A stretch of DNA of 64,000 nt from positions 744,001 to 808,000 of the forward strand of contig NZ_FZOY01000002.1 of assembly GCF_900188335.1 (NCBI RefSeq). The letters are read 5' to 3'. The DNA comes from Tropicimonas sediminicola. Its GTDB lineage: Bacteria > Pseudomonadota > Alphaproteobacteria > Rhodobacterales > Rhodobacteraceae. Shown piece by piece: positions 50,705-60,617 of the stretch. Under the pieces are notes generated by a model, which was not told the DNA's origin, did not search any database, and saw nothing but the letters and a program-made list of their open reading frames with translations. Made by a program: the position numbers and the translations under genes. Each line of letters opens with the position of its first letter. The stretch's first letter is position 1.

Positions 50705-52834
50705 TCAGGCCCGGCTTTTCTGACGCTCCGGTGGAACGTTCTGGGGGCTGTTTGCGTCGCGCAGCAGCCGTCCGTGCTTGCGCACCGCGGTGATGACCTC
50801 GCCGAACGTGCGATAGCCCTGCCCCTCCAGCATCGGGATCATCATCTCGAGCGCCGCCGCGGTGGCGATGGTGTCGCCCATGGCGGTGTGGCGGGCCTCC
50901 GGTGGGATGACGATGCCGAGGCGCTCCGTGAGGGCGTCGAGCGTGTGTGTCTCGGATTGCCCGAAGACCACCGCCGAGAGCAGCACCGTGTCGAGCACAG
51001 GATGGTCGAAGCGCGCCCCGATCTCCGCCTCGTTGAGCCGCAGGAATTCCAGATCGAAGGGCGCGTTATGCGCGACCAGCACGGCATCCTGCGCGAAGGC
51101 ATGAAACCGGCGGCCGACCGTCGCGATCGTGGGCGCATCGGCGACCATCTCGTTGGTCACGTGATGCACCTCGATCGCGGAGGCCGGGATCGGGCGTTCG
51201 GGGTTCACCAGGCTCTCGAACTCCTCGCCCGGGATCCGCTTGCCGCCAAGCAGGCGCAGCGCGGCAATCTGCACGATCTTGTCGCCGGAAGACGGCAGCA
51301 GCCCTGTCGTCTCGGTGTCGAACACCACGCAGGTCAGCTCCCGCAGGGGCGTCTGGGCCAGCTCCCCGCTGGGCTCGCGGTCCATCAGGTCGAAATCGTA
51401 GACCGCCGAGCGCCGCACCGTCGCCGGCTGCGCCGAGACCGGCCAGGCTTCGGGCAGCGGCAGGCGGATCAGGTTGCGCCCGACCGCACCGGCCTCGGGC
51501 CAGGCCTCGGTGGCATGGGCGGAGAGCACCGTGCGGCCGGTGACGTTCGCAAGCCCCACCTCGAGCGCCACGTCGAGCCAGCCGTCGAGCAACCCGACCT
51601 GCAGCAGACTGCCTTTCCAGCCAAGTGTGATCAGGGCGCCGCCGTTGCTGTCCTCCGAAATGCGGAGCGACAGGGCCGAGGCGCGGATCACCGAAACCAG
51701 CCGCTCGCAGAGATGCCCGAGCAGGGCGACAAGCTGGAAGGCGTCGCAGCGCAGGATCAGCCGCTCCGCCTCGCCGGTCAGCCGGATGCCGTCCAGCGCC
51801 GCCCGGGCGACGACGCTGTCGACGAGTTCGCTGGCGCGGATCTCGTCCATCGGCCACCAGCCGCCACGTGCGCGGTCGTAGCGCGTGCCGAGATCGGTGA
51901 TCGCATGGGTCAGCGCCGACACTTCGGACAGAAGCGCCGCGCGCCCGCCTTCGGCCGCCTCGGCCTCGCCCGCATCCAGAACAGTCTGCAGGTTGGCGGC
52001 CGGGCGGCGCACCTTGTCGAACACGTCTTCCAGGAGCGCCTCGCGCTCGGCATGGAGCGCCAGGTCGGCGGTGACATCGCGCAGCGTCAGCACGTAGCCC
52101 GGCGCTTCCGCCCCGCGCTGCGGCAGTTTCACCAGGCGCATCCGGCCGGCCATCACCTCGCCGGACTGGCTGGAGGCGCAGAGCACGTTGCAGGCGGCAT
52201 CTGCGTCCTCGCTCTGCATCAGCCGGGCAAAGGCGTTGCGCAGCGGCGCGGGGCGCAGGTAGTCGAGGATCGACCGGTCGAGCCCGGCCGAGACCTCGCC
52301 AGACAGGAGCTCCTGCGCATGGGCGTTGTAGAACACGATCTGGTGGTCGGAGGAGCAAAGCACCACGCCCGCGGGCACGTCGGCCAGCAGCGCCTGCAGA
52401 CGCGCGTTCTCCACCGCGAGCCGCGTCGTCTCGCGCTCGACCGCCTCGGCCAGCGCGTTCTTGGTCTCGGTCAGCGTGCCGGTGATCGCCTTGGCTGCGG
52501 GGGCGAGGTCCCCCAGATAACGCGCCGGTTCCTCGTCCAGTTCCTCCGCGATCTCTGCATGGGCGCGGGCCCGCATGCCGCCGGCGAGTTTCTGGATCGC
52601 CTTGGCGACGTGTTCGTCGAAGAGGATCCAGATCCAGGCCACCAGCCCGAGAATGCCGAAGCCGGCCACAAGACCGGCAAAGATGAACCCCGCCTTGATG
52701 CCGCTCTCCTCCACCCGGCGATAGCCGAGGATCTCGCCGAGGATCACCGCTCCGATGCCTCCAACCGCGAGCAGGGCGAAGAACAGGAAGACGCGCAGGC
52801 GCAGGCTGAGCCGTGTTGCCAGCCAGTCATGCAT
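50705..52834 (-). CDS. Membrane sensor with degenerate histidine-kinase core fused to a DEDDh 3'-5' exonuclease
   Basis: A 709-aa protein. Two membrane helices (about 12-35 and 48-72) and a linker precede a PAS-like domain (about 148-255). A HisKA-like dimerisation segment follows (263-320), but its H-box reads VFDKVRRPAA, with Asp at the phospho-His position. Next comes a HATPase-like stretch without clear N/G boxes (335-465). The C-terminal DnaQ/PolC epsilon-type domain is intact: FDTETTG (Asp506, Glu508), HNAPFD (Asp594) and HTAMGD (His649, Asp654). The ATG overlaps the response-regulator stop by 8 bp. Substrate may be DNA, RNA or oligonucleotides. Confidence 0.85.
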   Translation of the reverse strand: MHDWLATRLSLRLRVFLFFALLAVGGIGAVILGEILGYRRVEESGIKAGFIFAGLVAGFGILGLVAWIWILFDEHVAKAIQKLAGGMRARAHAEIAEELDEEPARYLGDLAPAAKAITGTLTETKNALAEAVERETTRLAVENARLQALLADVPAGVVLCSSDHQIVFYNAHAQELLSGEVSAGLDRSILDYLRPAPLRNAFARLMQSEDADAACNVLCASSQSGEVMAGRMRLVKLPQRGAEAPGYVLTLRDVTADLALHAEREALLEDVFDKVRRPAANLQTVLDAGEAEAAEGGRAALLSEVSALTHAITDLGTRYDRARGGWWPMDEIRASELVDSVVARAALDGIRLTGEAERLILRCDAFQLVALLGHLCERLVSVIRASALSLRISEDSNGGALITLGWKGSLLQVGLLDGWLDVALEVGLANVTGRTVLSAHATEAWPEAGAVGRNLIRLPLPEAWPVSAQPATVRRSAVYDFDLMDREPSGELAQTPLRELTCVVFDTETTGLLPSSGDKIVQIAALRLLGGKRIPGEEFESLVNPERPIPASAIEVHHVTNEMVADAPTIATVGRRFHAFAQDAVLVAHNAPFDLEFLRLNEAEIGARFDHPVLDTVLLSAVVFGQSETHTLDALTERLGIVIPPEARHTAMGDTIATAAALEMMIPMLEGQGYRTFGEVITAVRKHGRLLRDANSPQNVPPERQKSRA

Positions 52835-53228
52835 TGCTCGACTCCGCCTCGCCGGCCAGCAAGGCGCGGGTCCGTTCCAGCAGCTTCGAGAGATCGAAGG
52901 GCTTGGCGATGAACCCATCGGCGCCGAGCGCGAGCCCCTTGCGCTGCTCCATGGCGTTGCCTCGCGCGGTCATGATCAGGATCTTGATCCCGGCGAGTTC
53001 GCGGTCGGCGCGCACCGCCTGGCAGACCTCGTAACCCGACATGGTCGGCAGCATGACGTCGAGCAGCACCAGGTCGGGGCGCGTGTCGCGGATCGCCTTC
53101 AGGCCGGCCTCGCCATCGGTGGCGCGGCTCACCTCCATCCCCTCTCGCTTCAGTACATGGCTCAGCGCAAGCGCGATGTTGTCCTCGTCCTCGACGATCA
53201 GGATGCGGTCGGGTGCGTCGCTGGACAT
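52827..53228 (-). CDS. Single-domain response regulator (CheY-like receiver)
   Basis: A 133-aa receiver domain only. Acidic pocket Glu13-Asp14, phospho-acceptor Asp57 in LVLLDVMLP, switch Thr88 in LIMTARG and Lys109 in AKPFD are all present, so it should be phosphorylatable. There is no output domain. The next gene, overlapping by 8 bp, is the degenerate-kinase exonuclease. A phosphodonor kinase must therefore be encoded elsewhere, unless small phosphodonors such as acetyl phosphate are used. Confidence 0.93.
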   Translation of the reverse strand: MSSDAPDRILIVEDEDNIALALSHVLKREGMEVSRATDGEAGLKAIRDTRPDLVLLDVMLPTMSGYEVCQAVRADRELAGIKILIMTARGNAMEQRKGLALGADGFIAKPFDLSKLLERTRALLAGEAESSNA

Positions 53229-53233
53229 GGTGG

Positions 53234-58639: not shown

Positions 58640-58643
58640 GACG

Positions 58644-60617
58644 TCATCCCTTGTTCATTCTGTTTTCAATCAGATCCTCGACGACAGACGGGTCGGCGAG
58701 GGTGGAGGTGTCTCCAAGGGATCCGTAGTCATTCTCGGCGATCTTGCGCAAGATGCGGCGCATGATCTTGCCGGAGCGTGTCTTTGGCAGGCCAGGGGCC
58801 CACTGGATGAGATCGGGGCTGGCGATCGGGCCGATTTCGTGCCGCACCCACTGCCGCAGTTCCTGGTAGAGTTCCTGGGTCGGCTCGACGTCGTTCATCA
58901 GGGTGACGTAGCAATAGATGCCCTGCCCCTTGACGGGATGCGGGTAGCCGACAACCGCGGCCTCGGCGACCTTGGCATGGGCGACAAGCGCGCTTTCCAC
59001 CTCGGCGGTGCCCATCCGGTGACCCGAGACGTTGATGACGTCATCGACCCGGCCGGTGATCCAGTAATAGCCGTCCGCATCGCGGCGGCAGCCGTCGCCG
59101 GAGAAGTAATAGCCCTTGTAGTCCGAGAAATAGGCCTGCTCGAAGCGGCCGTGATCGTCCCAGACGCCGCGCATCTGACCGGGCCAGCTGTCCTTGAGGC
59201 AGAGGACGCCCTCGGCCTCCACGGAATCGATCTCCAGCCCGGACTGCGGGTCGAGGATCACCGGCTGCACACCGAAGAAGGGCTTGGTGGCCGAGCCGGG
59301 CTTGGTCGACATCGCGCCGGGAAGCGGCGTGATGAGGTGCCCGCCGGTCTCGGTCTGCCACCAGGTGTCGACGATCGGGCATTTCCCCTTGCCGACCTTC
59401 TCGTTGTACCAGTTCCAGGCCTCGGGGTTGATCGGTTCGCCGACCGAGCCCAGCAGCTTGAGCGAGGAGAGGTCGTGCTTCTCGACCCACTCGTCCCCCT
59501 GCCCCATCAGCGCACGAATCGCGGTCGGCGCGGTGTAGAACTGGTTGACCTTGTGCTTCTCGCAGACTTCCCAGAAGCGGCCCGGATCGGGATAGGTCGG
59601 AACGCCTTCGAACATCACGGTCGTGGCGCCGTTGGCCAGCGGACCGTAGACGATGTAGCTGTGGCCGGTGACCCAGCCCACGTCCGCCGTGCACCAGAAG
59701 ACATCGCCGTCATGGTAGTCGAAGGTGTACTGGTGGGTCATCGCCGCATAGACGAGATAACCGCCGGTGCTGTGCACGACGCCCTTCGGATGGCCCGTGG
59801 AGCCGGAGGTGTAGAGAATGAACAGCGGATCCTCGGCGTTCATCTCGATCGGGTGCTGGACGTCGGAGGCCTCCAGCATCATCTCGCCGTAGTCGAAATC
59901 GCGACCGTCCACCCAGGTGGTCTGCTCGCGGGTGCGGCGCACCATCAGCACCTTGGGATCGTGGATGCAGTGCAGCAGCGCGGCGTCGGTGTTGGACTTC
60001 AGCGGCGTCTTGCGGCCGCCACGCGGCGCGTAGTCGGCGGTGATCACGAGCTTGGCGTCGCAGCCGTTGACCCGGGCGGCCAGCGCATCGGGCGAGAAGC
60101 CGGCGAAGACGATGGAATGCACCGCGCCGATCCGGGCGCAGGCGAGCATCGCATAGGCTGCCTCGGGGATCATCGGGAGATAGATCACCACCCGGTCGCC
60201 CTTGCGAATTCCCAGCTGTTCCAGAACGTTGGCGAGCTTGCTGACCTGGTTGTGCAGCTGGCGGTAGGTGATGTACTGCGCTGGTTCGTGGATATCGTCA
60301 GGCTCGAAGATGATCGCGGTCTGGTTGCCGCGCTTCTTGAGATGCCGGTCGATGCAGTTGGCGGCGACGTTCAGGGTGCCGTCCTCGAACCATTTGATCG
60401 AGATGTTGCCCGGCTCGAAAGACGTGTCCTTCACCTTGGTATACGGCTTGATCCAGTCGAGGCGCTTGCCGTGCTCTCCCCAGAACGCTTCCGGGTCGCT
60501 GACAGAGGCGGCATACATCTTGTCGTAGGCGGCGGCATCGATATGCGCAGTGGCTTTGAAGTTCTCGGGAATCGCGCCGACTTCGGGCGTGGCGGCGGCC
60601 TTGGCTTTTGCGGACAT
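58644..60617 (-). CDS. acs: Acetyl-CoA synthetase
   Basis: AMP-forming acetate-CoA ligase of 657 aa; makes acetyl-CoA with AMP and PPi. It has the P-loop [11 protein letters not shown], the adenylate motif [10 protein letters not shown], the hinge-region [23 protein letters not shown] segment, and near the C-terminus the [11 protein letters not shown] site whose Lys is the acetylation target in homologs. The ATG at 60617 follows GGAGGGAG. It is the first gene of a long minus-strand run (acs-adk then symporter and signalling genes). Confidence 0.97.

What the first reader, a model, noticed from the sequence alone, without database searches (positions are those of the whole stretch)
50705..60617. 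Acetate uptake/activation cluster wired to a signalling module with a membrane exonuclease
Seen: eight minus-strand genes in a row, acs, adk, DUF4212, SSS symporter, cNMP/CBS/DUF294 protein, small membrane protein, CheY-like receiver, and a degenerate kinase-exonuclease, with gaps of 4 to about 160 bp and two overlaps or near-overlaps. Known: DUF4212 plus ActP-like symporters next to acs serve acetate use, and in Vibrio and Pseudomonas the CrbS/CrbR two-component system controls acs. Inference: here that control is replaced by a receiver with no output domain plus an exonuclease-linked sensor and a CBS/nucleotidyltransferase sensor.
Basis: partly seen in the sequence, partly recalled or inferred. 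Interest (0 to 1): 0.75.

Follow-up and report, generated by a model that had tools for sequence, protein, structure and literature searches.

The report
Acetate operon with dead-kinase exonuclease switch
A bacterial gene cluster that takes up and activates acetate carries, in the same conserved order in many relatives, a signalling set built around a membrane-bound nuclease joined to a dead sensor kinase, which probably receives orders through a small messenger protein, perhaps from an acetate-sensing kinase encoded elsewhere in the genome.

Summary
The eight minus-strand genes are real, at the stated coordinates. Their order is complete in 54 of 56 named loci with enough upstream DNA. The last gene encodes two TM helices, PAS, a histidine-kinase-like DHp/CA core and a DEDDh exonuclease. 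The phosphoacceptor His is Asp/Glu in 109 of 115 homologues and His in none; the exonuclease residues are kept in 59 of 60; the receiver is intact. In 68 family loci the receiver gene is present exactly where the dead DHp hairpin is intact (26 of 26 versus 0 of 42), with agreement in 6 of 6 independent changes; weaker definitions agree less. So the receiver probably docks on the dead kinase. The claim that CrbS/CrbR control is replaced fails: the genome has a CrbS-type kinase, and in 8 of 30 loci of other layouts one lies in the exonuclease's locus. The DUF294-exonuclease pair is ancient (adjacent in 32 of 40 loci outside the class) and its Pseudomonas counterpart is a known CrbR/ErdR target. 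Best reading: a transcription-independent output of CrbS-type signalling; substrate unknown.

The parts
58644..60617 (-). acs, acetate--CoA ligase (657 aa)
   Evidence: TIGR02188 1010.7 bits against cut-off 724.95; ACAS_N, AMP-binding, AMP-binding_C
57962..58639 (-). adk, adenylate kinase (225 aa), probably recycles the AMP made by Acs
   Evidence: PF00406 E 5.1e-56 with lid; the only adk found in this assembly; two or more full adk genes in 30 of 31 searched relatives with a cluster adk, by my count
57599..57838 (-). DUF4212, small subunit of the symporter (79 aa)
   Evidence: PF13937 E 1.6e-23, TIGR03647; ORF read
55797..57584 (-). sodium/solute symporter, VC_2705 family (595 aa)
   Evidence: TIGR03648 824.7 bits against 320.75
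55681..55796 (-). intercistronic region with two tandem hairpins between the metabolic and the signalling half
   Evidence: z below -3 against dinucleotide shuffles in 51 of 69 sequences incl. window; 11 of 56 and 0 of 12 for two other gaps; 22 consensus pairs, 4 with two-sided changes; no Rfam match
53839..55680 (-). cNMP-binding / CBS x2 / DUF294 nucleotidyltransferase / DUF294_C protein (613 aa)
   Evidence: Pfam domains; G-S, G-R and D-Q-D residues of the motif invariant in 95 of 95 homologues
53234..53755 (-). small membrane protein of unknown family (173 aa): two N-terminal helices and a beta domain with two invariant Cys
   Evidence: no Pfam/NCBIfam family; model pLDDT 92.6; no PDB fold match at E<=0.001; invariant columns
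52827..53228 (-). CheY-like single-domain receiver (133 aa), phosphorylatable by its residues
   Evidence: PF00072 E 4.1e-28; phospho-Asp 40 of 40 and Lys 40 of 40 aligned receivers
50705..52834 (-). membrane PAS-pseudokinase-exonuclease fusion (709 aa)
   Evidence: RNase_T E 4.8e-33 and PAS_4; model
52559..52804 (-). fusion residues 11-92: two transmembrane helices and extension
   Evidence: hydropathy, helices 11-44 and 46-92
52076..52369 (-). fusion residues 156-253: PAS domain
51869..52072 (-). fusion residues 255-322: pseudo-DHp hairpin, Asp273 where His is expected
   Evidence: alignment to VicK; D or E in 109 of 115, no His within two columns
51440..51847 (-). fusion residues 330-465: CA-like domain without recognisable ATP-binding boxes
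50822..51334 (-). fusion residues 501-671: DEDDh exonuclease, active-site residues intact

Best explanation
The cluster is an acetate/monocarboxylate uptake and activation operon (symporter, Acs, and Adk to recycle AMP) with a built-in output branch of CrbS-type signalling that needs no transcription factor. SHOWN: the gene order is conserved; the last gene is a membrane protein whose kinase core is dead (Asp/Glu for His) while its DEDDh exonuclease residues are intact; the receiver and the DUF294 nucleotidyltransferase keep their active-site residues; in this family receiver and intact dead-DHp hairpin are found together; exonuclease and DUF294 genes travel together across the phylum and are fused in two genomes; a CrbS-type kinase lies in the locus of receiver and exonuclease in some other lineages and elsewhere in this genome. 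INFERRED: the CrbS-type kinase phosphorylates the receiver; the receiver docks on the dead DHp hairpin, as DivK does on the pseudokinase DivL, and through the PAS/DHp coiled coil changes the activity of the membrane-held exonuclease; the exonuclease and the cNMP/CBS-sensing DUF294 enzyme then act as a pair on the transporter or on the mRNA of this pathway, tuning monocarboxylate flux to energy state.
For: Order complete in 54 of 56 named loci with at least 7.9 kb upstream. Receiver present in 26 of 26 family loci with an intact DHp hairpin and in 0 of 42 without; four of those 42 keep the CA-like part but have a broken hairpin. On a quick tree of SSS+DUF294 (66 loci) both traits change 8 times and agree in 6 of 6 independent pairs on well-supported branches, sign test p=0.031. 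The TM and PAS parts lie between the two lost pieces, so one deletion cannot explain the short forms. Fold and profile matches to WalK, VicK and the ThkA-TrrA kinase-regulator pair. CrbS-type kinase in the exonuclease's locus in 8 of 30 loci of other layouts, 7 of these 8 with a receiver too, in 10 of 40 loci outside the class, and elsewhere in the window's own genome. The 8 complete long fusions among those 40 all have an adjacent receiver and Glu for His. Exonuclease adjacent to DUF294 in 32 of 40, one polypeptide in L227 and L229. Pseudomonas: ErdR binds the PP_0354 promoter, and PP_0353 is needed for normal growth on pyruvate, like actP-I.
Against: The 'intact hairpin' cut (second helix) was chosen after looking at the alignment. 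With first-helix occupancy instead, three receiver-less loci count as DHp-bearing and agreement falls to 5.2 of 6 pairs on average (median p 0.063); with mere presence of the CA-like core, four do, and it is 4.2 of 6 (median p 0.125); no pair goes the other way in either. The CrbS-type kinase is also present in most searched family genomes that lack the receiver, so its link to this receiver is by neighbourhood only. L118 and L119 have a receiver beside a CrbS-type kinase but an exonuclease without DHp; L089 and L113 have a long fusion with no receiver found. No binding, phosphotransfer or nuclease assay exists. In P. putida, deleting PP_0353 or PP_0354 gave no acetate phenotype, and the pflu5625 mutant of P. 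fluorescens had none. Short fusions, 38 of 68 family loci, do without receiver and kinase-like core, so the receiver input is optional.
Confidence: 0.47

Rival explanations
1. Writer/eraser switch: the DUF294 enzyme nucleotidylates the symporter (or another target) and shuts it; the DEDDh domain is a phosphodiesterase that removes the nucleotide. The receiver and dead kinase control the eraser.
For: Pairing of the two enzymes (32 of 40 loci adjacent), fusion of the two in L227 and L229, both active sites conserved, membrane anchoring beside a membrane target. In P. putida loss of the exonuclease and loss of actP-I impair growth on pyruvate while loss of the DUF294 gene does not: the asymmetry expected if the exonuclease relieves an inhibition imposed by DUF294.
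Against: No DEDDh enzyme is known to me (recalled) that removes a nucleotide from a protein; I know of no modified SSS transporter (recalled); the pyruvate phenotype has other readings, such as the mRNA decay that the authors propose.
Confidence: 0.22
2. The exonuclease is an RNase that trims or degrades mRNA of acetate/TCA genes; the receiver switches transcript decay on or off.
For: The RNase T/DnaQ fold has RNA-acting members; strong intercistronic hairpins lie in this operon in 51 of 69 sequences; mRNA decay is proposed for PP_0353 by its authors.
Against: Does not explain the fixed DUF294 partner or membrane anchoring; Pfam found no RNA-binding domain in the fusion.
Confidence: 0.2
3. The receiver has no dedicated kinase: acetyl phosphate phosphorylates it, so the branch reads acetate overflow directly.
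For: An acetate kinase gene is present in the genome (C9:123385-124521); the receiver's phospho-site is intact.
Against: In some other lineages the receiver sits beside a CrbS-type kinase, in L114 with predicted 4-bp overlaps.
Confidence: 0.15
4. Neutral hitch-hiking: the signalling genes are a conserved but functionally separate neighbour block.
For: Strong intercistronic structure separates the halves; outside the class acs was found in only 12 of 40 DUF294 loci.
Against: A symporter lies in the locus in 25 of 40 distant DUF294 loci; complete order in 54 of 56 named loci; CrbR/ErdR controls both sets in Pseudomonas.
Confidence: 0.08

Closest known systems
PP_0354/PP_0353 of Pseudomonas putida (Pflu5625 in P. 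fluorescens; PA3232-PA3235 cluster of P. aeruginosa)
   Same: CBS/nucleotidyltransferase protein in an operon with an RNase_T-family exonuclease, next to actP-yjcH in P. aeruginosa; the promoter is bound by ErdR and Pflu5625 belongs to the CrbS/R regulon. That these proteins are the same pair as here is inferred from their described domains; I did not compare sequences.
   Different: There PP_0353 is described only as an RNase_T protein without a secretion signal; here the exonuclease is fused to TM helices, PAS and a dead kinase core, with its own receiver, a small membrane protein, acs and adk.
CrbS/CrbR (MxtR/ErdR) acetate two-component system
   Same: SLC5-type kinase; homologue in this genome and in the locus of receiver and exonuclease in some others.
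   Different: Described CrbS acts through the transcription factor CrbR; here a receiver without an output domain is tied to an exonuclease.
DivL-DivK of Caulobacter
   Same: A pseudokinase in complex with a phosphorylated response regulator changes another activity (PMC4853435, two passages read).
   Different: DivL carries Tyr at the site (recalled) and acts on a kinase; here Asp/Glu, and the output is a fused exonuclease.
DnaQ/PolC/DinG DEDDh exonucleases
   Same: Same fold and active site.
   Different: Membrane-bound, kinase-fused, next to transport genes.

Membership tests
DEDDh (DnaQ/RNase_T) exonuclease | Asp, Glu, Asp, His, Asp active-site residues in three motifs | tested here: met
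   Intact in the window and 59 of 60 aligned homologues; L120 is the exception
DEDDh (DnaQ/RNase_T) exonuclease | DnaQ-type fold | tested here: met
DEDDh (DnaQ/RNase_T) exonuclease | 3'-5' nuclease activity | not testable with these tools
   no assay
Histidine kinase (functional) | phosphoacceptor His in the H-box | tested here: not met
   Asp in the window; D/E in 109 of 115, none His
Histidine kinase (functional) | N, D/G ATP-binding boxes of HATPase_c | tested here: not met
   No HATPase_c match; boxes of VicK/ThkA (known motifs, recalled) aligned to unrelated residues
Pseudokinase that docks a receiver (works like DivL) | DHp/CA fold kept without the phosphoacceptor | tested here: met
   Foldseek TM-scores over the whole model are low (0.16 for the best kinase row), as domain placement is uncertain
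Pseudokinase that docks a receiver (works like DivL) | binds a single-domain receiver | tested here: inconclusive
   Only co-inheritance shown; no binding data
CrbS/CrbR system in this genome | SLC5-domain histidine kinase | tested here: met
   C14:630996-633668, 44% over query residues 69-967 of the SLC5-kinase of L093; HisKA and HATPase_c. Pfam SSF was not reported for it and the STAC domain was not tested
CrbS/CrbR system in this genome | CrbR, a receiver-LuxR regulator | tested here: inconclusive
   15 GerE matches, 14 over the cut-off, none identified as CrbR
ActP acetate symporter | TIGR02711/PRK09395 score above cut-off | tested here: not met
   143.3 against 1099.25; 186 against 750
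VC_2705-family sodium/solute symporter with DUF4212 | TIGR03648 and TIGR03647 above cut-off | tested here: met
   824.7 against 320.75; 82.6 against 26.05
DUF294 nucleotidyltransferase | G-S and D-x-D nucleotidyltransferase motif | tested here: met
   95 of 95

The most novel reading that the evidence does not exclude
A reversible nucleotidylation switch on a monocarboxylate symporter: DUF294 writes the nucleotide in response to cNMP/adenylate levels, a membrane-held DEDDh 'exonuclease' erases it, and a receiver acting through a dead kinase core tells the eraser when. This would be a new use of the DnaQ fold and a new kind of two-component output.
Probability: 0.2. Interest if true: 0.87.

Novelty: new variant of a known kind. 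Interest (0 to 1): 0.62.

Why it matters
The nuclease/CBS-nucleotidyltransferase pair of Pseudomonas has had no mechanism: its authors call the precise role of PP_0353 unclear. The version here adds an input module whose evolution points to how it is controlled: a receiver and a dead DHp hairpin kept or lost together. If right, CrbS-type sensors have a second, non-transcriptional output, and a kinase-dead core drives a nuclease-fold enzyme. The writer/eraser prediction can be tested at once by combining the two published P. putida deletions.

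Tried and rejected
Rejected: 'CrbS/CrbR is replaced'. Rejected: the symporter is ActP. Rejected: the exonuclease is a decayed remnant. Tested and not informative: presence of the CrbS-type kinase does not follow presence of the receiver within the family; promoter and terminator scans found no more than shuffles give (1 against mean 0.9; 5 against mean 5.2), although one 14-pair stem falls in the SSS-DUF294 gap; no Rfam family; the small membrane protein gave no Pfam or NCBIfam family above cut-off and no PDB-sequence or PDB-fold match at E<=0.001. 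CrbR was not identified.

Literature, ten searches of open-licence PMC papers: DUF4212+acetate 0 papers, DUF4212 alone 0, DUF294+exonuclease+acetate 0, DUF294+nucleotidyltransferase+exonuclease 0, DUF294+acetate 5, about copper, zinc and Leishmania vesicles by title, histidine kinase/exonuclease domain/PAS/RNase T 6, none relevant by title, STAC/SLC5/exonuclease and others 3, CrbS/CrbR/acetate 18, PA3232-PA3234 23, of which 20 listed, DivL/DivK/pseudokinase/receiver 3. In what I saw of these (listings, plus passages or sections of six papers) no paper describes the kinase-dead exonuclease fusion or its receiver.

Rows dropped: L094 (fusion split over two frames, receiver present) and L217 (5-kb fragment, no receiver hit) were left out of the 68-locus count, and L120 (reduced cluster) was not included. 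L064 and L221 were left out of the 66-row tree for lack of a full symporter gene. L113 and L114 belong to the window's family but have another layout and are counted with the other loci. By my count 72 of 149 family genomes have a match below 1e-50; G028 and G082 of these were not fetched in full. Of 58 strong DUF294 hits outside the class, counted by hand, 40 were fetched. Two exonuclease ORFs among those 40 are cut by the edge of the fetched stretch (L261, L291) and were not judged as long or short.

Full report
OBSERVATION. Pfam and NCBIfam confirm each named family except the small membrane protein, which has none. The symporter is of the VC_2705 family with its small subunit DUF4212, not ActP. 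The fusion has two hydrophobic N-terminal stretches, a PAS domain and a C-terminal RNase_T domain.

CONSERVATION. By my count, 72 of 149 genomes of the window's family have an exonuclease match at E below 1e-50; the other matches are at the level of housekeeping DnaQ-type genes. tblastn over fetched loci shows the same order in genus after genus. In 80 named loci, 56 reach at least 7.9 kb upstream of the fusion; 54 show hits for all genes in order, the other two being L143 (no adk) and L163, Caenispirillum salinarum (no acs, no adk). These are tblastn hits at E<=1e-3; intactness of each gene was not checked. Loci with less upstream DNA include L178 and L192 (Celeribacter; acs without adk) and L191 (Rhodobacter capsulatus; only 52 residues of adk matched). 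The receiver lies directly upstream of the fusion in 79 of 80; L181 has it 413 bp upstream.

RECEIVER AND DEAD HAIRPIN GO TOGETHER. In 38 of 68 family loci the fusion is a short form, about 460-485 aa in all but one, with TM and PAS parts and exonuclease but no kinase-like core (L215 measures 627 aa as an untrimmed ORF). The receiver is present in 26 of 26 loci with an intact DHp hairpin and in 0 of 42 others; of those, 38 lack the whole core, and L082, L083, L087 and L115 keep the CA-like part but have a broken hairpin. On a quick tree of symporter plus DUF294 (66 rows; SH-aLRT support only) each trait changes 8 times, and in 6 of 6 independent pairs on supported branches they change together (p=0.031). 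The hairpin cut was set after looking at the alignment. With first-helix occupancy agreement is 5.2 of 6 on average (median p 0.063), with mere presence of the CA-like core 4.2 of 6 (median p 0.125), and in neither does a pair go the other way. No locus has a receiver without the core in any of the three tables. Because TM and PAS parts sit between the two lost pieces and are kept, a short form without receiver needs two deletions. This is the main new evidence: the receiver's job here is to talk to the dead hairpin. Outside the family layout the rule holds less strictly: of 16 long fusions in which I aligned the core (8), 14 have an adjacent receiver; L089 and L113 do not; and L118 and L119 have a receiver beside a CrbS-type kinase with an exonuclease that lacks the hairpin.

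WHO SPEAKS TO THE RECEIVER. Of 30 loci of other layouts, 8 (L088, L089, L090, L092, L093, L114, L118, L119) hold an ORF of 746-1029 aa with an SLC5-like N-terminal part and a histidine-kinase C-terminal part in the exonuclease's locus; the 20 weaker exonuclease hits L222-L241 hold none. Pfam finds HisKA and HATPase_c in all seven tested; SSF is over its cut-off in one, weak in two and not reported in four. L114, a genome of the window's own family, reads acs-DUF485-ActP-DUF294-CrbS-type kinase-receiver-fusion, with predicted 4-bp overlaps between the last three. The window's genome has such a kinase about 161 kb away on the same contig. Most searched family genomes have it whether or not they have the receiver, so it must have other partners too. 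An acetate kinase gene leaves acetyl phosphate as an alternative donor.

THE CORE PAIR IS ANCIENT. Among the 30 loci of other layouts a DUF294 protein was found in 26. In 40 of 58 strong DUF294 hits outside the class, some from the same genome, an exonuclease is within 500 bp in 32, a symporter in the locus in 25, DUF4212 in 12, a CrbS-type ORF in 10, acs in 12. In L227 and L229 exonuclease, CBS and DUF294 domains are one polypeptide. Eight of the 40 carry a complete long fusion with Glu at the His position and an adjacent receiver.

WHAT IS KNOWN. In P. fluorescens the cAMP-binding/CBS/nucleotidyltransferase protein Pflu5625 is in the CrbS/R regulon, its mutant without phenotype (PMC5715377, passages). 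In P. putida ErdR binds the PP_0354 promoter and the gene is up on acetate (PMC8402216, passages). PP_0353, an RNase_T protein in the same operon, is dispensable on acetate but needed for normal growth on pyruvate, as is actP-I; PP_0354 is not (PMC9927547, sections 7 and 8 read). In P. aeruginosa PA3232-PA3235 rise about 16-fold during growth on propionate, though PA3233-PA3235 fell two-fold after propionate was added (PMC9765439, passages). So the DUF294-exonuclease-transporter link is in print; the dead-kinase fusion, its receiver and their co-loss I did not find in the ten searches listed under Tried and rejected.

MECHANISM. I favour a relay at the membrane from CrbS-type kinase to receiver to dead DHp to exonuclease, acting with DUF294 on transporter or transcripts. 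The P. putida asymmetry (exonuclease and transporter mutants defective, DUF294 mutant normal) fits an eraser that relieves an inhibition written by DUF294, but this is an inference from growth curves in another class. The adk gene fits recycling of the AMP released by Acs (established chemistry). By my count it is a second copy in 30 of 31 searched relatives that have it in the cluster (G084 has one and a fragment), yet it is the only one found in this assembly.

AN EXTRA ELEMENT. The gap between symporter and DUF294 genes holds two tandem hairpins, structured in 51 of 69 sequences, against 11 of 56 for the adk-DUF4212 gap and 0 of 12 for the DUF294-small-protein gap, where few loci had 40 bases or more, with some compensatory changes. 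It splits the operon into a metabolic and a signalling half and may set their expression ratio.

Noticed in passing
window 55681-55796 (- strand): Two strong tandem hairpins in the gap between symporter and DUF294 genes, conserved as structure in 51 of 69 sequences; perhaps an mRNA stabiliser or attenuator.
   Followed up: partly
window 57962-58639; G000 whole genome: The cluster adk is the only adenylate kinase gene found in this assembly, although nearly all searched cluster-bearing relatives have two; the housekeeping copy may lie in an assembly gap.
   Followed up: partly
L227 9062-11314 (+), L229 7506-9638 (-): Natural fusions of RNase_T exonuclease with CBS-DUF294-DUF294_C in one polypeptide.
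   Followed up: partly
L222 9274-10776 (+): An exonuclease of the same group whose membrane part is an EamA-type transporter domain.
   Followed up: no
window 53234-53755: Small membrane protein found in 69 loci of the window's layout and in none of 31 other loci checked, with invariant Trp and two Cys and no known fold match.
   Followed up: partly
L191 171-409: In Rhodobacter capsulatus DSM 1710 only a 52-residue remnant of adk is matched between acs and DUF4212.
   Followed up: no
L163: Caenispirillum salinarum AK4, by name from another order (recalled), carries the module without acs and adk; possible gene transfer or contamination.
   Followed up: no
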